16,199 nucleotides of DNA, from NCBI GenBank assembly GCA_023150835.1, contig JAKLKB010000146.1, positions 1-16,199 on the forward strand, given 5' to 3'. Below are positions 376-16,199 of the stretch, in pieces (position 1 is the stretch's first letter; each line of letters begins with the position of its first letter). The position numbers and the translations under genes are program-made. Source of the DNA: Myxococcota bacterium (GTDB lineage: Bacteria > Myxococcota_C > UBA6777). The notes below the pieces were generated by a model that did not search any database, had not been told where the DNA came from, and saw only the letters and a list, made by a program, of their open reading frames with translations.

Positions 376-695
376 GTTGAATCGAAAACGATAGGTTTTG
401 GGATGAGAAGAAGCGCAATTGAATCGAAAACGATAGATTTGGGATGGGAGGAAGCGTAATTGAATCGAAAACGATAGATTTGGGGATGAGAAGAAGCGTA
501 ATTGAATCGAAAACGATAGATTTGGGGATGAGAAGAAGCGTAATTGAATCGAAAACGATAGATTTGGGATGGGAGGAAGCGTAATTGAATCGAAAACGAT
601 AGATTTGGGGATGGGAGGAAGCGTAATTGAATCGAAAACGATAGATTTGGGGATGAGAAGAAGCGCAATTGAATCGAAAACGATAGATTTCGGGA
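376..695. repeat. 41/42-bp minisatellite, seven full units plus a partial eighth
   Basis: Seven head-to-tail units start at 376, 418, 459, 501, 543, 584 and 626, and a partial one starts at 668. Units are 42 bp except those at 418 and 543, which lose one G and are 41 bp. Each carries the interrupted palindrome ATCG-AAAA-CGAT followed by a purine-rich tract that exists in two versions, GATGAGAAGAAG and GATGGGAGGAAG, interspersed along the array. Because unit length is not always a multiple of three, long reading frames across it are not real genes. There are no spacers, so it is not a CRISPR array. The last unit degenerates after the GATAGATTT core. Confidence 0.95.
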
Positions 696-993
696 CGACG
701 GGACGATGTTTAGAATCGAAGTTAGGTTGTAGGAGGTGTTGGTGTCGGTTGTGGAGTCGGGGGAGATGTTTTCTTTGAGGATGGAGAGTTTTGTAGGTTG
801 GGGTAGCGGGTGAGGGGATCTTGTTTTCGGAAGAGATAGCGGCCCGTGTCAATGACTTCGCCGTGTCGTCAGGTCGAGCCCCTAGTTGCGGTTTTCCGTT
901 TTGTGGTTTTGCCGTTTGCGGCGCGTGTGTGTGGCGAGGGTAGTTGAAGCATGCCCTTGATCGCGCTTTTCCCCTCGTGGCGTTGTGGGTATG
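696..993. other. Non-coding stretch, nothing recognised
   Basis: This is about 300 bp between the minisatellite and the Rpn remnant. Open frames here are short or overlap the repeat array. It may contain heavily eroded 5' sequence of the Rpn pseudogene, but I could not align any of it to the intact copy. Confidence 0.5.
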
Positions 994-3255: not shown

Positions 3256-3384
3256 GGCAAAAAAAACCCGTTGTTCGTGCTGTTTCAAGCGGCACTGTTG
3301 TTGGTTTGAAAAACCTGTGATCACCCCGCCAAGTCGGGGTCAAGGGGCGACAGTCTATGGCGGGGTGTGGGGTGAAACCCCATA
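3256..3384 (+). repeat. Dispersed repeat family B, copy 1
   Basis: It aligns almost without gaps to 12276-12410. Shared blocks include an A-rich run then CCG, TGTTTCAAGCG, and CGGGGTCAAGGGGC, and both copies end in a G/C hairpin (GGGGTGAAACCCC at 3369-3381; GGGGCAGCGCCCC in the other copy). Identity by eye is about three quarters. No coding frame is conserved between the copies, which suggests a structured non-autonomous element. Its right end overlaps the next repeat family. Confidence 0.75.
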
Positions 3385-3523
3385 GGCGTTAGGTTAAGGT
3401 GAAAACCTCGTAGAGTCGGTCTTGATCGCCTTTTCTTTTTTTCTCCCCCCCTCAATCCCCCCGTGAACGGGGGGAAGTTGGAACGGGCAGCGTCTGCATT
3501 TCGTGCATACAGCGTGCGTCATG
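3377..3523 (+). repeat. Dispersed palindromic element, copy 2 (right arm of the inverted repeat)
   Basis: This is the reverse complement of 1-147. It runs from CCCCATAGGCG through a T-rich stretch to the G/C hairpin (six C at 3457-3462, six G at 3469-3474) and ends near CGTGCGTCATG. The spacing between conserved blocks is the same in both arms (43 bp), so they are full-length relatives and not two independent short matches. Confidence 0.8.
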
Positions 3524-3554
3524 AAAAAACAAAATCCCTGAGGCTTCCGACTTT

Positions 3555-3636
3555 CGCTCCCTCCCCTGTTCACGGGGGAGGGCGGGGTGGGGGGCTTTCC
3601 TCCACTTAACAAGGCGCGTATGGGGTGAAACCCCAC
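3555..3636 (-). repeat. Dispersed palindromic element, copy 3 (shortened)
   Basis: It has the same order of blocks as copy 1: a hairpin (CCTCCCC at 3560-3566 against GGGGAGG at 3575-3581 with a GTTCAC-containing loop), then CCACTTAAC and GGCGCGTATGGGG near 3603-3626, followed by GGGGTGAAACCCC (3622-3634). The central part is shorter than in copies 1 and 2. Between this copy and the next gene (3637-3800) I see nothing but AT-richer spacer. Confidence 0.65.
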
Positions 3637-3800
3637 AAGATCAATCCGATCTCACTCCATTCGACACCTACCCAACCCCATTACCCCTCAAAAAACAACC
3701 TTGCGTTATTCTATGGTGTGGAGTATCCGATGACACGGGGATGTTGTGCTGTGCGTAGCGAGGATGTTGTATGTTTCTCGAAGGCAAGGAGAGTGATGGG

Positions 3801-4855: not shown

Positions 4856-6319
4856 TTACCAAACCTCTGTATAGTCTTTGTTGATCTTGTGTTTGAACAT
4901 AAAAACGTCGCAGCCCTCTTGCCAAAGGTACTCGTGGCGTATCTCGTGAAGTCGAGGAAGTCGCAGCACCTCGGACAATAGCAATTCGTTGCGTAGAAAG
5001 ATGTGTTGGTGGTTTTGGAACACATCTTTTGCGAAGAAAAGTGCTTTATTTCTCGGGCCGTAAATAAACTCCAGAACCGTGAAGGGGTTGAACTCCATCA
5101 ACACGGCGTCGCTTGGTGTGTCCATCTTCCCAACACATTGACCAATACCTATTTCTCGGATGACCTCGAAGCCTTCGTCGTGTTTTTCGAGCCATTCACG
5201 AGCGATAGGAGTCAGGTAAAAGCGAACAAGCCTCATTTTACTCAGATACTGCTTCCAATACTTTCCGTAGCGGCTTTCTAAACGTTTTTCGTCACCGTAG
5301 GCATCACTCGTCAGTGAATTAATATAAGAATAAAAATGCACATCTAAAAGGAGGACGTGGACACGCCGGTAGTCTTCATACTGCACTTTCCCCCCCCAAG
5401 AAAGTATACGGGATCGAGCTTGTTCGGAAAACAATTTCCAATCGCTTTCAGCGGAAAGAGGGTGGCCAAATTCTTTGCGAAGAAGAGAGAAAAAATCATC
5501 TTTGCAATTTTTGAGTAGCTCATCGGGCGTTTTTTCTAGAAGATCGTTGACCAATTCGATATAGTGCGTTCGGCTTTGCTCTTGAAACACACGAAACACC
5601 CAAAGCACATACATCCAAGTAGGCCATGCTTTTTGAACAAGCTTTTCGCGGCAGAGATCGAGGATCGTGTTCGTGAAATCACCTTGAGATGGCAGGTTCA
5701 TGCTCACGAATACTTCTTGAGGTGTTTTTTTTGTGTTGCAGAAGTCATGGACACGCGACGCAGATTGTTTTATCCCTTGTTCGGCACTGTCTGGCGAAGG
5801 GAACCATTCTTTGAGTCGTTTGATCATCAAAAAATGCTGCTTCTTTTGGTCTGCTGCCAAGGCCGTTAACAATGAGCGCATAAAGTCTTGTTGGGCTTTC
5901 TGCGTCCAGCATCTTTGGTTTTCTTGTGGTGAGGATGGTTCGGAAAGAGACTTCTGATTTTCTTGAAGGAAAGTAAAAAAGCATTGAACCATCAAATAAA
6001 GGATGGAAAAATCCTGAGATTGACTGGCCTGTCTCCAAAGGTGCTGTATGTGAGTTGCTAGATTCTTTTGTGTTGCGGGATGTTGCTTTTCGATGGAAAA
6101 CCAGATCCGTAAACGGTGGTGTGGCTTGAGTTGAGAGGGTGCCTCTTGTAAGAGACACAGAAGATCTTCGATGGAAAAAAAGATGGAACCTTCTGAATTT
6201 GGAGTACTTGGCTGTTTGTCTCGCCATGTATTTCCCAAGAGGGCGTCGAATCTTTCTTCGATCAACTTGCTGATGGGCGGAAGAGCGATCCTTTCGGGCG
6301 AAAAATCGGGGAGCTTCAT
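4856..6319 (-). CDS. zorC: ZorC-like EH-signature protein of a Zorya anti-phage system
   Basis: A 487-residue soluble, largely helical protein with no signal peptide or membrane segment. The C-terminal half (about 280-475) has the layout of the EH_Signature domain: basic and aromatic YGKYWKQYL (351-359), then LMEF...VLEF with Glu-417, and near the end LHEIRHEYLWQ with His-462. Glu-417 and His-462 fit the Glu and His that name the family. In Zorya, ZorC is a cytosolic effector thought to bind DNA and act after the ZorAB proton-driven complex senses phage. The start codon overlaps the stop of the zorB remnant (ATGA at 6316-6319), the tight coupling expected of a zorB-zorC operon. The frame is uninterrupted. 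Sampled lines are 40-47% GC, below the flanking genes. No zorD or zorE follows; the next gene converges from the other strand. Confidence 0.85.
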   Translation of the reverse strand: MKLPDFSPERIALPPISKLIEERFDALLGNTWRDKQPSTPNSEGSIFFSIEDLLCLLQEAPSQLKPHHRLRIWFSIEKQHPATQKNLATHIQHLWRQASQSQDFSILYLMVQCFFTFLQENQKSLSEPSSPQENQRCWTQKAQQDFMRSLLTALAADQKKQHFLMIKRLKEWFPSPDSAEQGIKQSASRVHDFCNTKKTPQEVFVSMNLPSQGDFTNTILDLCREKLVQKAWPTWMYVLWVFRVFQEQSRTHYIELVNDLLEKTPDELLKNCKDDFFSLLRKEFGHPLSAESDWKLFSEQARSRILSWGGKVQYEDYRRVHVLLLDVHFYSYINSLTSDAYGDEKRLESRYGKYWKQYLSKMRLVRFYLTPIAREWLEKHDEGFEVIREIGIGQCVGKMDTPSDAVLMEFNPFTVLEFIYGPRNKALFFAKDVFQNHQHIFLRNELLLSEVLRLPRLHEIRHEYLWQEGCDVFMFKHKINKDYTEVW

Positions 6320-6705
6320 TTTTTTCTCAACACTTTTTTGTTTGGCGAAGAATAATTGCGGATCCCTGCTTGTAGCCGATCCCAGCTTTCGAGCAGTTCT
6401 GTCTCGCGAAATTGGATGCGAAAGATCACGCGTCGATCTTTTTCACGCGTGAACCGTTTTTCTGCGTCCAATTTCCCTCGACCACTCGGCAAGATACTTT
6501 GGAGCATGGATTCTCGGTCGGCTTCGCTTCGGTAATTGCAATCTTCAGAGATGACGTAAGAGGCGACAGAAAAGGAACGCCGCAAACTCATCATCAGATT
6601 CACCCGATCCGTACCGACTCGATCCGTATGCCCTTCGATGAGGATACGAGATATCTCTTTTTTGAAGTTTGGCAAAAAGAGAACAACATAGCAAGATGCC
6701 AGCAT
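6316..6705 (-). pseudogene. zorB: 3' remnant of zorB (OmpA/MotB-like peptidoglycan-binding domain)
   Basis: This 129-residue frame matches the C-terminal half of ZorB. ILIEGHTD (21-28), NLMMSLRRSFSV (36-47), a SGRG turn (74-77) and RRVIFRIQF (91-99) follow the OmpA/MotB peptidoglycan-binding fold; the Asp of HTD and the Arg pair are the residues that normally contact diaminopimelate. Full ZorB proteins are around 240 residues, from memory, and begin with a transmembrane helix followed by a linker. Both are absent here, so the product could not anchor in the membrane or form the ZorA5B2-type motor. The ATG at 6705 has no good ribosome-binding site. The junction with zorC is intact. Upstream to 6984 no zorB or zorA sequence is visible in any minus frame. 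Most likely a 5' deletion left this piece; a functional short protein is less likely. Confidence 0.8.
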
Positions 6706-6749
6706 TGGTTTGCGTGGTGGATGCGTTCGATCATTTCTTCGTAACTCAA
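6600..6749 (-). other. Out-of-frame 49-codon ORF with a strong ribosome-binding site over the zorB break
   Basis: A TTG at 6749 follows AAGGAG (6755-6760) by five bases and opens a frame beginning with Ser-Tyr-Glu-Glu-Met-Ile-Glu-Arg. It overlaps the start of the zorB remnant in a different frame and stops at 6600. It may be the true 5' end of a rearranged gene separated from the zorB frame by a frameshift, or the end product of the deletion. I recognise no family in it. Confidence 0.3.
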
Positions 6750-6844
6750 GCGATCTCCTTTCGGTTTGTCTTCTTCTTATCGCCGTACTCCGTTCGCTCC
6801 TGATCGATTGGACGAAAGTGTTTCTCTTTTTTCTTAGTCTTGGG

Positions 6845-6872
6845 AGAATACAGAGAGAAAAATTTTTTGCAA
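6845..6872 (-). promoter_or_regulatory. Candidate sigma70-type promoter upstream of the zorB/zorC remnant
   Basis: Reading the minus strand, TTGCAA (6872-6867) is followed after 16 bases by TATTCT (6850-6845), in an A/T-rich tract. It points toward the zorB remnant about 140 bp away. It matches a vegetative -35/-10 pattern loosely; no operator is visible. Confidence 0.35.
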
Positions 6873-6984
6873 TAGGTTCGTTTTGGTAAGGCTTGACAAG
6901 GCGAATGTCTCGAAGCTGGTAGCTTTCTGCGCTGCGGTCGGTCGTTTGAGTCGGTGTTGCGGGATGGTGAAACGCTGCGGCGCG

Positions 6985-7359
6985 TTAGATCCCATACTTT
7001 TGCTTCAATATGTTGACGATTTCTTGGGCTTTTTCGAGCTGCCCGTCAGGGATAGGGATGTGAAGCGCAACCGCGTTGTCGAATCTTCCGTTGGTCACGA
7101 AGATCTCGATCCGCAACGTCGCAGTTGTTTCTTCGGTGCTTGGTTCGATGATCGCTCTTTGGATGCGATTCCCAAAGGTTTGAAAGGCATAGAGGTTGCC
7201 GTTTTGGATCACGAGATCTTCGGAGATGATCATTTCTTGGGTGGGTGGAGGTTGTTTGAGAGAACGTTTGGCGTCCCACCAATGCCACGCATGAAGTGCT
7301 TGCATCCCGCCCGATATCAACAGGCTGACTCCCCATAAGGCGAGGAGGTAGCGTTGCAC
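6985..7359 (-). CDS. Small membrane-anchored protein of unknown function
   Basis: A 124-residue protein starting with GTG at 7359. It opens with a hydrophobic segment (residues about 4-18) preceded by Gln-Arg, giving an uncleaved anchor or a signal peptide, followed by a Trp/His-rich patch. The rest (about 40-124) is soluble, alternates polar and hydrophobic residues in a beta pattern (IQNGNLYAFQTF, RIEIFVTN) and ends in a charged helix. I do not recognise the family. It lies upstream of the zorB remnant on the same strand but is separated by about 280 bp and a candidate promoter, so it is probably not part of that operon. A start further in, at the next ATG, would remove the hydrophobic segment and is less likely. 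Confidence 0.6.
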   Translation of the reverse strand: MQRYLLALWGVSLLISGGMQALHAWHWWDAKRSLKQPPPTQEMIISEDLVIQNGNLYAFQTFGNRIQRAIIEPSTEETTATLRIEIFVTNGRFDNAVALHIPIPDGQLEKAQEIVNILKQKYGI

Positions 7360-7487
7360 ACGGCCTCTTCACAGAGCCTAGCGAAAGACCGATATCTCTG
7401 GTATGGGTGTCGTGCGCGTGGGGTCATATCGTACGCGGTTTACAAGGTGGTTTTTGCGGGCCGTTGAAGTGCTTGGAGGATGTGCGG

Positions 7488-10872: not shown

Positions 10873-11955
10873 TTGAAAGAACAAGCGCTTGCTTTACTCA
10901 AACGCCTGACCGAAGCGCATGGTGCGCCTTCGCGTGAAGAACAAGTGCGTGCGATCTTTCGCGCCGAAGTGCCTGCGGCCTGTGAAGCCGATCGCATGGG
11001 CAATATCACTTGTGCGCTGCGCGGTCGCAGCGAGCGTCCACGCATCCTGATCGCCGGCCACATGGACGAAGTGGGGTTCATGGTTCATTCGATCACCAAC
11101 GAAGGACTGCTGCGTTTTGTGCCGCTTGGTGGGTGGTGGGGGCATGTCTTGCTTGCACAGCGGATGCGCGTCTTGACCCAAGACGAGCGCGAGATCATCG
11201 GTGTGGTCACGTCCAAACCACCGCATTTTTTGACGGCAGCGGAGCGCGAAAAGGTCTTGCCGATCGAGTCGATGTACATCGATATCGGCGCACGCGACAA
11301 AAAAGAAGCCACAGAGACTTTTGGGGTGCGCCTTGGTGATACGATCGTCCCGGATAGTGCGTTTACACAGATGGCAAATCCCGATCTGTTGTTGTGCAAA
11401 GCCTTTGACAACCGCGTGGGGATGGCGCTGACCATCCAAAGCGCCCAGATGATCGCCAAAGAAGAACATCCCAACACCGTGTATTGCACCGCAACTGTAC
11501 AAGAGGAACTTGGCTTGCGGGGTGCCAAAACCGTCGGTGAGATGGTCGATCCCGACGTCGCTTTGATCCTCGAAGGCCCGCCCGCTGACGATCTGCCGGG
11601 TGTCTCGGCGGACGAGCGGCAAGGTGTCTTGGGTGGCGGCGTTCAGATCCGTTTGCTCGATACCACCGCCGTTTCCAATCATCATCTCTCGCGTTTTGTG
11701 ATCCGCATCGCCGAAGAAGCCCAGATCCCGCATCAAGTGACCGTTCGCCGCAGCGGTGGGACGGATGCAGGAGCCTTGCACCTTTACAAGCGCGGTGTCC
11801 CTACCGTCGTCCTTGGTGTCCCTGCCCGCTACATCCACACCTCCAACAGCATCATCCATCTCCAAGACTATCTCTCTGCCTTGCAGCTTGTTCGCATGTT
11901 GGTTCAGCGGCTCGGCGAAGAGAGCGTGGCTTCTTTGGCTCCTTGGACGATGTGA
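10873..11955 (+). CDS. M42-family metallo-aminopeptidase (glutamyl aminopeptidase/FrvX-like)
   Basis: A 360-residue cytosolic peptidase. The binuclear metal site of the M42 family is visible: His-63 in AGHMDE (with Asp-65), bridging Asp-179 in FDNR, catalytic base Glu-211 and ligand Glu-212 in QEELGLRG, an acidic ligand at Glu-234 in LEGPPADD, and His-322 in ARYIHTSNS. SGGTDAG (294-300) is the conserved glycine-rich loop. Members form large tetrahedral dodecamers and trim N-terminal residues from peptides released by proteolysis; some are misannotated as cellulases. Length is normal for the family and nothing is missing. The position aligned with Glu-234 is Asp in some well-studied members, a conservative difference. 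Substrate preference cannot be told from sequence. Confidence 0.93.
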   Translation: MKEQALALLKRLTEAHGAPSREEQVRAIFRAEVPAACEADRMGNITCALRGRSERPRILIAGHMDEVGFMVHSITNEGLLRFVPLGGWWGHVLLAQRMRVLTQDEREIIGVVTSKPPHFLTAAEREKVLPIESMYIDIGARDKKEATETFGVRLGDTIVPDSAFTQMANPDLLLCKAFDNRVGMALTIQSAQMIAKEEHPNTVYCTATVQEELGLRGAKTVGEMVDPDVALILEGPPADDLPGVSADERQGVLGGGVQIRLLDTTAVSNHHLSRFVIRIAEEAQIPHQVTVRRSGGTDAGALHLYKRGVPTVVLGVPARYIHTSNSIIHLQDYLSALQLVRMLVQRLGEESVASLAPWTM

Positions 11956-11998
11956 TCGCTCCTCGTCTTTGCTCCACAGAACTTGCGCCGCTAGATCC

Positions 11999-12262
11999 GC
12001 CACACAAAAAGCTCTCGCAGAAATCTAGCAGACAGACACGCCACACAAAAAGCCCTCACAGAAATCTGGCAGACAGACACGCCACACAAAAAGCTCTCAC
12101 AGAAATCTGGCAGACAGACACGCCACACAAAACGCTCTCACAGAAATCTGGCAGACAGACACGCCACACAAAACGCTCTCACAGAAATCTGGCAGACAGA
12201 CACGCCACACAAAACGCTCTCACAGAAATCTGGCGGATAGACACGCTACACAAAACGCTCCC
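11999..12262. repeat. 41-bp tandem array, six full units plus a partial
   Basis: Full units start at 11999, 12040, 12081, 12122, 12163 and 12204, with a partial at 12245. The core is GCCACACAAAA followed by GCTCTCACAGAAATCTGGC and AGACAGACAC. Units 1-3 read AAAAAGC and later units AAAACGC, showing stepwise amplification. Because 41 is not a multiple of three, a long open frame crosses it through all three frames; this is an artefact. No spacers are present, so it is not CRISPR. It begins 43 bp after the M42 peptidase stop. Confidence 0.95.
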
Positions 12263-12275
12263 ATCAATACGACTT

Positions 12276-12410
12276 GTGGGCCAAAAAAACCGTGTTCGCG
12301 GTGTTTCAAGCGACAGTGTTGTCTGTGTGAAAAGCCTCTGATCTTTTCGCCATTACGGGGTCAAGGGGCCAGAGGTCCCTTGCGGGGTATGGGGCAGCGC
12401 CCCGTGAGAG
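12276..12410 (+). repeat. Dispersed repeat family B, copy 2
   Basis: This is the partner of 3256-3384 in the same orientation, from an A-rich run followed by CCGTGTTCGCG to the hairpin GGGGCAGCGCCCC. It directly follows the 41-bp array, so the array and the element may have been shaped by the same slippage or insertion events. Confidence 0.75.
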
Positions 12411-12527: not shown

Positions 12528-12782
12528 TTTTTGCGGTAACACTAAGGGGCGGATATCGTATGAGTCCTCTCCAGAAAGAAATGGAGTAGGCCGTTCTTTG
12601 TTGCGTTGGTGAGCGAATACGTGGGGTCTTGCATCGTGGACGCTTTTGGCGTTGAGATAGAGAACTATCCCATAAGGCGAAAGGCTCGCAAGGTCGGCTG
12701 TTGTATATCTTGTTGGGTGCGTGGACCTTAGAAGCATACCAAACATAGCTTGACCACGAGTGGATGGAGGGTTGGTCTGATT
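12528..12782. other. Upstream region of the Cys-rich gene, nothing firm
   Basis: No gene is seen. The region should hold the promoter of the large downstream gene; TTGACC near 12750 resembles a -35 element but has no matching -10 at the right distance. GGAGGG at 12766-12771 lies eleven bases before the start codon and is a plausible ribosome-binding site. Confidence 0.4.
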
Positions 12783-15700
12783 ATGGATGCGCAGCATAGA
12801 GTATTTCATCGGCCATTGGTTTTGTGGTGTTTGCTGTTTCTGTCCTCGATTCAAGTCCATTGCCTCCCATCGCGCCCGTCGCTTGAGGGGGTTCCTTGTG
12901 TAAAAGAAGACGAGTGCGGCGAGACATTGCGTTGTATCAACCACACCTGTTTGCCGGCATCGTATCTGTGCGAGGGGGGATGTCGCTCGGGTGAAGAATG
13001 CGTCAAAGGGACGTGTGTTCTTCGATGCAGCGAAACGGAGACGCGCTGTGGCAATTTGTGTGCGGATCTGAAACGCGATCCCAAGCATTGTGGTGGGTGC
13101 GACAAGGCTTGTGCGTCAGGAGAAGCGTGTTTTTCGGGGGTTTGCGGGCCAGCTTGTCAGGGTGGGTTCACAAGCTGCGCGAATGTTTGTGTGGATCTCA
13201 AGACAGATCGGGCGAACTGTGGGACGTGCGGGGTGGTTTGTAAGGAGGGCGAGGTTTGTGTTGGGGGCGTTTGTGGGTTGCGGTGCGTGGCGGGGCAGAC
13301 GGCTTGTGAGAAGGGCTGCGTCGATCTCAAGACGGATCGGGCGCATTGTGGGGTATGCGGAACGGCTTGTGGGAAGGGGCAGATCTGTTCGAATGCGCAA
13401 TGCCAGCTTGTTTGCCAGAGCGGATTGACCGATTGTACGGGGAAGTGCGTAGATACACAGACGGATAACGCGCATTGTGGGGCGTGTGGGGTGATCTGTG
13501 CGGTCGGGCAAGTTTGTTCGGGCGGAAAGTGCGAGGTGTCTTGTGCGCAGGGTCTTTTGATCTGTAGTGGTGTGTGTGTGGATCCGCAAAAAGATCGCTT
13601 TCATTGTGGGGCGTGTGGAGCGGCGTGTGCGCAAGGAGAAGTCTGTAACGCAGGAGCGTGTGCTTTTTTCTGCCCGCAAGGGGTGGACAAGTGCGGGACG
13701 CTTTGCACTCAGCTCCAGTCGGATCGGGCGAACTGTGGGGCGTGTGGGACGGCTTGCAAGAGCGGCGAAGTGTGTGCCAACGGTGTGTGCGCGTTGTCTT
13801 GCCCGGGAACGCAGGTGGAATGTAGCGGTGGGTGCGCAGATCGGCAAAGCGACGACAACAACTGTGGTGCTTGTGGGACGCGCTGCCTTGGTGGAAAGCG
13901 CTGTGTTGCGGGGGCTTGCGCTTGTCCGGGCGGGCAAAGCGATTGTGGCGGGACGTGCTTTGATACGCTGTCGGATCGGCAGCGTTGTGGGGCTTGCAAT
14001 ACGGTGTGTTCGGCAGGGCAAGTGTGCGCGGCAGGGGCTTGTTTGGTGTCTTGCCCGGGGACGCAGGTCGAATGTAGCGGAGCTTGCTTTGATGCGAAGA
14101 ATAGCAACGCGAACTGTGGAGGTTGTGGAACGCGCTGTTTGGGGGGGATGAACTGTGAAAACGGGAGTTGCTTGTGTCCTTCTCCTGACGGAGTGTCTCC
14201 GCGCATGGCCGACTGTGCAGGGGTTTGTATCGACACACGCACAAGCCGTTCGCATTGTGGGGCTTGTAACAACGCCTGCCCTGCGGGGGCGGTATGTTCG
14301 GCGGGTGTGTGTGGGGTTGCGTGCCCTGTGGGACAAACCGAATGTAGCGGGGCTTGCTTTGATACGCAGGTGAGCACAGCGCATTGTGGGGCGTGTGGAA
14401 CGCCTTGTACGGGCGGGAAGCGTTGTGTGGCTGGTTCGTGTGCGTGTGGGGCAGGTCAAGCGGATTGCGGTGGGGCGTGTGTGGATCGGGCGACGGATCG
14501 CTTGAACTGTGGGGTGTGTGGGACGGCTTGTGCGAGTGGTGAGGTCTGTGCGGCTTCTACGTGTGTGGTGAGCTGTCCAATCGGGCAGACCGTATGTGGC
14601 GGAAAGTGCGCGGATACGCAAAAAGACGACGCTCATTGCGGAAGTTGTGGGACGATCTGTGGGGCGGGTCGTTCTTGCGCTGCGGGGGTGTGTGCGTGTG
14701 TGACGGGAAAGACCGAATGTTCGGGGGTTTGTGTCGATACACAAGTGGAACGAGCGCATTGTGGGGGATGTAGTGCAGCGTGTGGTGGGTCGGATGTGTG
14801 CGTGGCGGGTTCTTGTTCAACGAACTGCCCGTCGGGCCAGACGGTCTGCACAGGGCAATGCAAAGACACGCAAAACGACAGCGATCATTGCGGAAGTTGC
14901 GGTGTGGTGTGTAGCGGAGGGCAGTATTGCAGCGGAGGGGGGTGTGTTTGTCCGTCAGGTCTGACTTTTTGTGGGGGGGCGTGTGTGGATACGAGCAGCG
15001 AACCCAACCATTGTGGTAGCTGTGGAAACGCCTGTGGGACGGGGCGCGTTTGTTCGAGCGGAGCGTGCGGGTCGGTTTGTCCGAGCGGACAGACCCATTG
15101 CAGCGGAGCGTGCGTGTCGTTGGGGACGGATCGCAGCCATTGTGGGGCGTGCGGGGTGGTGTGCGGTGCGGAAAAGCTGTGTGTTGCGGGGGCGTGTTCT
15201 TGTTCGGCGGGTTTGTCAAGTTGCCCGATCGGTTGTCGGAATCTTCAGACGGACGCGACGAATTGTGGGACGTGTGGCAATCATTGCGGAGGTTCGGGGG
15301 TTTGTATCGCGGGAGTGTGTCGCGTGTTGTGCAACGCAGGGGAGGCGAATTGCGGAGGTTCGTGTGTAAGCTTACAGACGAGTGCATCGCATTGTGGGGC
15401 GTGTGGGAGGGCTTGCGTGGCAGGAGAAAGCTGTGCAAGTGGCGTGTGTGTGGTGGGAGCGATCGAGCCGTTTGCGGCGAAGGCAGGCGGGAATGGGGGA
15501 GATATCGCGAATGGTGTAGCGGTCGATGCTTCCAAAAACATCATCGTGGTGGGGCAATTCCAGAACACGGCGACGTTTGGTGCGTGGTCGTTGACTTCGC
15601 TCGGGGGGTGGGATGGTTTTGTGGCGAAGACCAATGCAGCGGGAGGATACAAGTGGGCGCAGCGTGTGGGTTCAGCAGCAGGGGATGATCAGGTCAACAA

Positions 15701-16199
15701 GGTTGTGGTGGATAGTGTTGGGAACATCTATATCACGGGCAAGTTTTACGGGACGCTGACGCTTGGTAATATCACGCTGACCTCGGCAGGATCGGCGGAT
15801 ATCTTTGTTGCGAAGCTCGATCAAGGGGGGAACTTTTTGTGGGCCAAGCGTGCAGGGAGCAGCCACGCAACGCTTGAGGACGAGGGGCTTGCGATAGCGC
15901 TCGATACAACGGGGAATGTGTACGTCACAGGTGCGTTTGCAGGAACAGCGGACTTTGGTGCAACGAGTCTGGTCTCGGCGGGGGACACGGATATCTTTGT
16001 GACCAAGTTGAACAACAACGGTGTTTTTCTGGCTTCGTGGCGAGATGGTGGGGCAAACAAAGATGTTGCCAAGGGTATCGGGATCGATGGGGCGGGCAAT
16101 GTGGTGGTGACGGGCGAGTTTCAAACCCAGACAGTGATCGGTTCAAACACGTTCAATGCAGCGGGTGGAGGGGGAGATACGGATATATTTGTTGCGCGA
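12783..16199 (+). CDS. Secreted Cys-rich repeat protein with C-terminal SBBP beta-propeller repeats (3' end beyond window)
   Basis: The open frame runs 1139 codons from ATG 12783 to the window end without a stop. Residues 1-28 form a signal peptide with a hydrophobic core (PLVLWCLLFLSSIQV); a nearby Cys does not fit a standard lipobox. From about residue 45 to 890 the protein consists of Cys-rich modules built around [HN]CGxC, each followed by a CxxGxxCxxGxC pattern; I count 19 such motifs. This repeat type is common in myxobacterial surface proteins and often receives misleading automatic names. From about 893 on, Cys vanishes and SBBP-type repeats begin, with phrases such as GDIANGVAVDASKNIIVVGQ and ADIFVAKLDQGGNFLWAKRAG, the blades of a predicted beta-propeller; about four are visible. 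It is probably an outer-surface or matrix protein with a disulfide-bonded stalk and a propeller head. The function is unknown. Confidence 0.85.
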   Translation, partial: MDAQHRVFHRPLVLWCLLFLSSIQVHCLPSRPSLEGVPCVKEDECGETLRCINHTCLPASYLCEGGCRSGEECVKGTCVLRCSETETRCGNLCADLKRDPKHCGGCDKACASGEACFSGVCGPACQGGFTSCANVCVDLKTDRANCGTCGVVCKEGEVCVGGVCGLRCVAGQTACEKGCVDLKTDRAHCGVCGTACGKGQICSNAQCQLVCQSGLTDCTGKCVDTQTDNAHCGACGVICAVGQVCSGGKCEVSCAQGLLICSGVCVDPQKDRFHCGACGAACAQGEVCNAGACAFFCPQGVDKCGTLCTQLQSDRANCGACGTACKSGEVCANGVCALSCPGTQVECSGGCADRQSDDNNCGACGTRCLGGKRCVAGACACPGGQSDCGGTCFDTLSDRQRCGACNTVCSAGQVCAAGACLVSCPGTQVECSGACFDAKNSNANCGGCGTRCLGGMNCENGSCLCPSPDGVSPRMADCAGVCIDTRTSRSHCGACNNACPAGAVCSAGVCGVACPVGQTECSGACFDTQVSTAHCGACGTPCTGGKRCVAGSCACGAGQADCGGACVDRATDRLNCGVCGTACASGEVCAASTCVVSCPIGQTVCGGKCADTQKDDAHCGSCGTICGAGRSCAAGVCACVTGKTECSGVCVDTQVERAHCGGCSAACGGSDVCVAGSCSTNCPSGQTVCTGQCKDTQNDSDHCGSCGVVCSGGQYCSGGGCVCPSGLTFCGGACVDTSSEPNHCGSCGNACGTGRVCSSGACGSVCPSGQTHCSGACVSLGTDRSHCGACGVVCGAEKLCVAGACSCSAGLSSCPIGCRNLQTDATNCGTCGNHCGGSGVCIAGVCRVLCNAGEANCGGSCVSLQTSASHCGACGRACVAGESCASGVCVVGAIEPFAAKAGGNGGDIANGVAVDASKNIIVVGQFQNTATFGAWSLTSLGGWDGFVAKTNAAGGYKWAQRVGSAAGDDQVNKVVVDSVGNIYITGKFYGTLTLGNITLTSAGSADIFVAKLDQGGNFLWAKRAGSSHATLEDEGLAIALDTTGNVYVTGAFAGTADFGATSLVSAGDTDIFVTKLNNNGVFLASWRDGGANKDVAKGIGIDGAGNVVVTGEFQTQTVIGSNTFNAAGGGGDTDIFVAR

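What the first reader, a model, noticed from the sequence alone, without database searches (positions are those of the whole stretch)
4856..6705. Decapitated Zorya anti-phage system: intact zorC overlapped by the tail of zorB
An EH-signature protein with both signature residues (Glu-417, His-462) is preceded, with a 4-bp ATGA overlap, by an OmpA/MotB domain carrying IEGHTD, NLMMSLRRS and RRVIFRIQF. That pairing and order are diagnostic of zorB-zorC in Zorya systems. zorA, the membrane half of zorB and any zorD or zorE are absent. zorC remains a full open frame, so either the deletion is recent, or ZorC keeps a role without the ZorAB motor or works with a ZorAB encoded elsewhere.
Basis: partly seen in the sequence, partly recalled or inferred. 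Interest (0 to 1): 0.75.

Follow-up and report, generated by a model that had tools for sequence, protein, structure and literature searches.

The report
Zorya defence operon gutted by deletion
A bacterial anti-virus operon has lost its membrane motor through one internal deletion but keeps one intact protein (ZorC); its relatives show a little-noticed Zorya branch that lacks the usual ZorD helicase-nuclease and carries an undescribed small gene instead.

Summary
Observation confirmed. Window 4856-6319(-) is a full-length ZorC relative (PADLOC ZorC, E 2.6e-20; Glu417 and His462 present). It overlaps by ATGA the C-terminal half of ZorB (6316 to about 6690; PADLOC ZorB positions 122-226 of 232, E 1.4e-26). 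One deletion of about 2.6 kb therefore joined this gene's start to mid-zorB, removing zorA and the membrane half of zorB.

Absence of zorD is not part of the damage. Complete relatives (two same-family genomes, a Nostoc plasmid, 20 probable cyanobacterial loci) also lack ZorD; four proteobacterial type I loci all have it, without the small gene. The window is a broken member of a ZorD-less Zorya branch.

Most likely it is a recently disabled system. Against simple decay: zorC has no stop, and three congeneric species carry syntenic full-length zorC without neighbouring zorAB, at dN/dS 0.23-0.28, so ZorC can be selected without an adjacent motor. Of 28 loci surveyed, 20 are complete, 5 broken, 3 zorC only.

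Whether this ZorC is expressed or works is untested. A MAG assembly error is unlikely but not excluded.

The parts
4856..6319 (-). zorC, 487 codons, full-length open frame with Glu417 and His462 of the EH signature
   Evidence: PADLOC ZorC PDLC00618 E 2.6e-20; 28% and 27% identity to ZorC of complete operons in same-family genomes; signature residues
6316..6690 (-). zorB', C-terminal half of ZorB (from about residue 113 of 234); lacks the membrane helix and the first half of the peptidoglycan-binding domain; 4-bp ATGA overlap with zorC.
   Evidence: PADLOC ZorB PDLC00609 positions 122-226 of 232, E 1.4e-26; alignment to complete ZorB starts at residues 113-121
6690..6749 (-). start of the small (~115-codon) gene that accompanies zorA-zorB-zorC in relatives: TTG 6749, MSYEEMIERIHHANQCWHLA; out of frame with zorB'
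   Evidence: profile of 23 relatives: E 5.7e-5 in this stretch, 12.0 bits against a best of 5.8 in 1000 shuffles; invariant Asn and Trp kept
6755..6761 (-). Shine-Dalgarno-like AAAGGAG in front of TTG 6749
   Evidence: sequence
6685..6705 (-). deletion junction: small-gene homology ends and zorB homology begins within this stretch

Best explanation
This is the remnant of a ZorD-less Zorya operon (small gene - zorA - zorB - zorC). A single internal deletion fused the first ~20 codons of the small gene, out of frame, to the second half of zorB. In characterised Zorya the ZorA5B2 motor is thought to sense phage attack on the envelope through the ZorB peptidoglycan-binding domain and to recruit the cytoplasmic effectors through the ZorA tail; without ZorA and the ZorB membrane helix that cannot happen, so the locus should give no Zorya defence. 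ZorC itself is complete, and the loss is recent in evolutionary terms. Shown: the remnants, their order, the junction, the intact zorC frame, complete operons in relatives. Inferred: loss of defence activity, and recency.
For: Remnants of three operon genes lie in native order and orientation with a junction of about 15 nt. Complete zorA, zorB and zorC occur in two same-family genomes, with the small gene, and the window ZorC forms a clade with theirs (100/100). No other ZorC in the genome and no true ZorA. Published type I Zorya loses protection when any component is deleted, and needs the ZorB peptidoglycan-binding domain and the ZorA tail (PMC11890865). Decay is common in the branch: 5 of 28 surveyed loci have a broken zorC, one by a deletion that fuses zorA to the end of zorC.
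Against: zorC has no stop or frameshift in 487 codons; if unconstrained since the deletion, drift is bounded to about 4% per site (95%), about 1.4% if indels at a tenth of the substitution rate are counted. Orphan zorC genes under purifying selection exist elsewhere.
Confidence: 0.7

Rival explanations
1. ZorC is retained for a function of its own that does not need the ZorAB motor (for instance DNA binding or helping another nuclease); the deletion removed only the motor part.
For: Full-length zorC. Three species of one genus carry zorC at the same place (beside cysH) with no zorA, zorB or zorD in the fetched stretches and dN/dS 0.226-0.277, against 0.26-0.46 for zorC in complete operons. The operon 5' end is kept, and overlapping frames (GTGA near 6600, ATGA at 6316-6319) could couple translation down to zorC (sequence; inference).
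Against: No sister strain to measure selection here. ZorCD without ZorAB gave no protection in the published assay (PMC11890865). Whether the orphan-zorC genomes have ZorAB elsewhere was not searchable. No promoter above chance.
Confidence: 0.2
2. Assembly artefact: the MAG contig was misjoined and the real genome holds a complete operon.
For: A contig filed under another phylum (L029) shares 483 identical bases with the window and then diverges, so chimeras touch this locus. The genome is a 239-contig draft.
Against: Both sides of the junction come from the same operon type in native order and strand; no repeat is found at the junction; ZorC is collinear with relatives across the L029 breakpoint.
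Confidence: 0.06
3. ZorC partners with the genome's other ZorAB-like pair (contig C191, MotA-like 312 aa and MotB-like 382 aa), giving a split Zorya system.
For: The MotB-like protein matches ZorB models at up to 3.2e-33, and its neighbour matches ZorA models at 1.9e-12.
Against: The MotA-like protein lacks the long ZorA cytoplasmic tail. The pair sits with unrelated genes, and the MotB-like protein also matches generic peptidoglycan-binding and MotB models.
Confidence: 0.03

Closest known systems
Complete operons of the same family, G004 (L031) and G002 (L032)
   Same: Nearest ZorC relatives, one clade; the small gene is present in both; G004 has the order small-zorA-zorB-zorC and the same 4-bp zorB/zorC overlap
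   Different: Complete zorA and zorB; in G002 the order is zorC-small-zorA-zorB; G004 ZorC has Gln at the signature Glu position
Zorya type I (zorA-zorB-zorC-zorD, e.g. Klebsiella plasmid NZ_OY856405, Polaromonas, Nitrosospira, Polymorphobacter plasmids)
   Same: zorB followed by overlapping zorC; ZorC with the EH signature
   Different: They have full zorA, full zorB and zorD, and no small gene; the window lacks zorA, half of zorB and zorD
ZorD-less small-zorA-zorB-zorC loci in probable cyanobacteria (L073, L120-L141) and on the Nostoc sp. HK-01 plasmid (L074)
   Same: Same PADLOC ZorC, ZorB and ZorA models (PDLC00618, 00609, 00597), no zorD, small gene
   Different: Those loci are mostly complete; ZorC only 14-20% identical to the window's
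Orphan zorC genes of genus g351 (L135, L136, L137)
   Same: Full-length zorC without a complete zorA and zorB beside it
   Different: No zorB or small-gene remnant; syntenic in three species and under purifying selection

Membership tests
ZorC (EH-signature protein) | significant match to a ZorC profile over the C-terminal domain | tested here: met
   PDLC00618 2.6e-20, residues 193-480
ZorC (EH-signature protein) | conserved Glu and His of the EH signature | tested here: met
   Glu417 and His462 aligned with relatives, His invariant in 6 of 6 of A3
ZorC (EH-signature protein) | Pfam EH_Signature (PF15611) match | tested here: not met
   no hit up to E 10, while 21 of the 24 aligned ZorC proteins match it; the window protein is divergent
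ZorC (EH-signature protein) | same fold as solved ZorC (8r68) | tested here: inconclusive
   model pLDDT 53, fold matches meaningless
Zorya type I system | ZorA motor subunit with long cytoplasmic tail | tested here: not met
   none in the window; only a short-tailed relative elsewhere in the genome
Zorya type I system | complete ZorB with membrane helix and peptidoglycan-binding domain | tested here: not met
   only model positions 122-226 of 232 remain
Zorya type I system | ZorD helicase-nuclease | tested here: not met
   none in the window; own-genome hit covers only the helicase part of the ZorD model
ZorD-less small-zorA-zorB-zorC branch | ZorC in a clade with complete ZorD-less loci | tested here: met
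   100/100 with G004 and G002, long branches
ZorD-less small-zorA-zorB-zorC branch | small gene next to the zor genes | tested here: met
   its first ~20 codons remain at 6749-6690
ZorD-less small-zorA-zorB-zorC branch | complete zorA and zorB | tested here: not met
   deleted: a broken member
ZorD-less small-zorA-zorB-zorC branch | phage defence without ZorD | not testable with these tools
   needs an infection assay

The most novel reading that the evidence does not exclude
ZorC of this branch has a selected function without the ZorAB motor, as the three syntenic orphan zorC genes suggest, and the window's deletion is a case in which the motor was lost and ZorC retained for that function.
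Probability: 0.2. Interest if true: 0.75.

Novelty: new variant of a known kind. Interest (0 to 1): 0.5.

Why it matters
By itself the locus is a broken defence operon, which is ordinary. Dissecting it showed a branch of Zorya that lacks ZorD in every complete locus examined and carries a conserved, apparently undescribed ~115-aa gene (18 genera; no match in PADLOC, no significant Pfam or NCBIfam match). Published type I Zorya needs ZorD, so either this branch defends with ZorABC plus the small protein or it recruits another nuclease; that is directly testable. The orphan zorC genes under purifying selection raise the question of what ZorC does without the motor.

Tried and rejected
Zor remnants further upstream: frameshift-tolerant alignment of 6707-7420 to ZorA and ZorB scored no better than shuffles; the pairwise test also missed the small-gene start, which only the family profile found. 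A 35-bp match of the junction region in G001 was chance. Empty-site comparison with G001 failed: its syntenic contig ends at window 3837. ZorC fold: model too poor (pLDDT 53), fold matches meaningless. Small-protein fold: confident model (pLDDT 91; two helices and a three-stranded sheet) but no convincing relative (best VIA Z 5.2, rmsd 1.4 over 49 residues). A profile comparison of the window ZorC with A5 is not used because A5 contains it. ZorC relatives in plasmids (window query) and viral contigs: none. Own-genome ZorD hit is an SNF2 helicase without the ZorD N-terminus. Literature: nothing found on zorABC loci naturally lacking zorD, on this small gene or on orphan zorC in the held library, which does not hold all papers on Zorya.

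Full report
Observation. The 487-aa and 129-aa minus-strand frames, their ATGA overlap and the quoted motifs are as described; Glu417 and His462 are at the stated positions. hmmscan against PADLOC-DB gives ZorC (PDLC00618, 2.6e-20, residues 193-480) for the long frame and six ZorB models for the short one, best 1.4e-26 over model positions 122-226 of 232. Pfam sees OmpA in the short frame (1.3e-6) and nothing in the long one, not even EH_Signature. The frame is coding-like (GC at codon positions 0.53/0.34/0.49) and AT-rich against its neighbours (0.45 against mostly 0.58), which fits horizontal acquisition (inference). By sequence search ZorC is 28% and 27% identical to proteins of two same-family genomes.

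Context. The window is the whole contig C88 of a 7.56-Mb, 239-contig genome, 93% complete, from a phylum with only five held genomes. Same-family genomes G004 and G002 carry complete zorA (673, 899 aa), zorB (234, 279 aa) and zorC (500, 578 aa), identified by PADLOC. The window's ZorC forms a clade with theirs (100/100, with long branches). In the window's genome this is the only ZorC. MotA/ExbB and ZorB hits were listed; only the C191 pair resembles ZorAB, with a 312-aa MotA-like protein that lacks the long tail.

Where the break is. Frameshift-tolerant alignment of the upstream 1.1 kb to both complete ZorB and ZorA proteins finds ZorB only from residue 113-121 onward and nothing beyond chance upstream. 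A clustering of neighbouring genes then revealed a small gene of ~115 codons in 18 genera next to zorA-zorB-zorC. Its profile also finds the gene upstream of zorA in G004 (1.5e-27) and, in the window, the peptide MSYEEMIERIHHANQCWHLA beginning at TTG 6749 behind AAAGGAG. In this stretch the match has E 5.7e-5, and its 12.0 bits exceed the best of 1000 shuffles (5.8); 11 of 19 residues equal the G002 protein, and the invariant Asn and Trp of the family are kept. The small-gene remnant runs into zorB' at about 6690-6700, out of frame. Hence one internal deletion removed the rest of the small gene, all of zorA and the first half of zorB; by the G004 operon about 2.6 kb (inference). The operon's own 5' end and zorC are untouched.

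ZorD. Because complete relatives had no zorD, the branch was surveyed: PDLC00618 matches 28 of 386 genomes of the phylum of G051, probably cyanobacteria, since the only named relative is a Nostoc plasmid whose ZorA is 83% identical to that of one locus. In the fetched loci, 20 have zorA, zorB and full-length zorC (two of them with an interrupted zorA, L122 and L130, and one cut by a contig end, L134), 3 have only zorC, and 5 have a broken zorC. None has zorD by profile or tblastn, nor do G004 and G002. The same ZorD profile finds ZorD in all four proteobacterial type I loci examined, none of which has the small gene. On the Nostoc plasmid, zorABC is followed by a DpdE/DrmD-like helicase and a DISARM-like methyltransferase. 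The small gene is present in 21 of the 28 loci; its place varies (before zorA, after zorC, or, in G002, between zorC and zorA), which argues for functional association rather than hitchhiking. It has no match in PADLOC and no significant one in Pfam or NCBIfam, and a confident model without convincing structural kin.

Does ZorC outlive the motor? Three species of one genus (L135, L136, L137) hold full-length zorC beside the same cysH-like gene, with no zorA, zorB or zorD and no significant small-gene match in the fetched stretches even with filters off. Pairwise dN/dS is 0.226, 0.277 and 0.237 at dS 0.18-0.36; for zorC in complete operons it is 0.26-0.46, and for the neighbouring cysH-like gene 0.06-0.11. 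So zorC without an adjacent motor can be under purifying selection. For the window itself the only evidence is the open frame: if it had been unconstrained, the absence of stops bounds drift to about 4% per site, about 1.4% if indels count.

Mechanism. In characterised type I systems ZorA5B2 is an ion-driven motor; the ZorB peptidoglycan-binding domain, the ZorA tail and each component are needed for defence (PMC11890865). The window lacks the ion channel, the tail and half of the peptidoglycan-binding domain, so Zorya-type defence is not expected. This is inference from published mutants, not a test. ZorC translation may persist through overlapping frames (GTGA near 6600, ATGA at 6316-6319; sequence, inference), but no promoter above chance was seen.

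Artefact check. A contig filed as KSB1 MAG_5 (L029) equals window 6390-5908 and then diverges; G004 and G002 ZorC align across that point in the window, so L029 is the chimera or a variant. At the window's own junction both sides come from one operon type in native order and no repeat is present, so misassembly is unlikely but not excluded.

Verdict. Observation confirmed; interpretation partly supported. The locus is a disabled member of a ZorD-less Zorya branch with an apparently undescribed small gene. The branch and the orphan zorC genes are of more interest than the broken locus itself.

Noticed in passing
L029 (JABWAN010000610.1) 1-483 against window 6390-5908: A contig filed under candidate division KSB1 is 100% identical to the window over 483 bp and then unrelated: chimeric contig or strain variant from the same source.
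   Followed up: partly
window 3261-3638 and 3-146: High-copy dispersed repeat, dozens of copies across the window's own genome; another family at 12280-12403.
   Followed up: no
window 377-751 and 11934-12302: Two arrays of 41-42-bp tandem repeats, unrelated in sequence, at the two sides of the window.
   Followed up: no
window 12750-16199: Long Cys-rich repeat protein on the + strand (CG-x-C-type repeats of about 129 bp in the DNA), cut by the contig end; relatives lie near the zor loci of G002 and G004.
   Followed up: no
L074:11756-19741 (Nostoc sp. HK-01 plasmid AP018320): ZorD-less zorABC directly followed by a DpdE/DrmD-like helicase and a DISARM-like methyltransferase: possible coupling of two defence systems.
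   Followed up: partly
L022:8050-10172 (own genome, contig C191): MotA/MotB-like pair that matches ZorA and ZorB models, with a long coiled-coil insert in the MotB-like protein and no zorC beside it.
   Followed up: partly
L146:8514-10463: Deletion fusing ZorA residues 1-569 to the ZorC C-terminus in one open frame of 649 codons, zorB lost: an independent internal operon deletion.
   Followed up: no
L031:6464-7966: ZorC of the intact G004 operon has Gln in place of the signature Glu (IVQYMYG), so the Glu may be dispensable in this branch.
   Followed up: no
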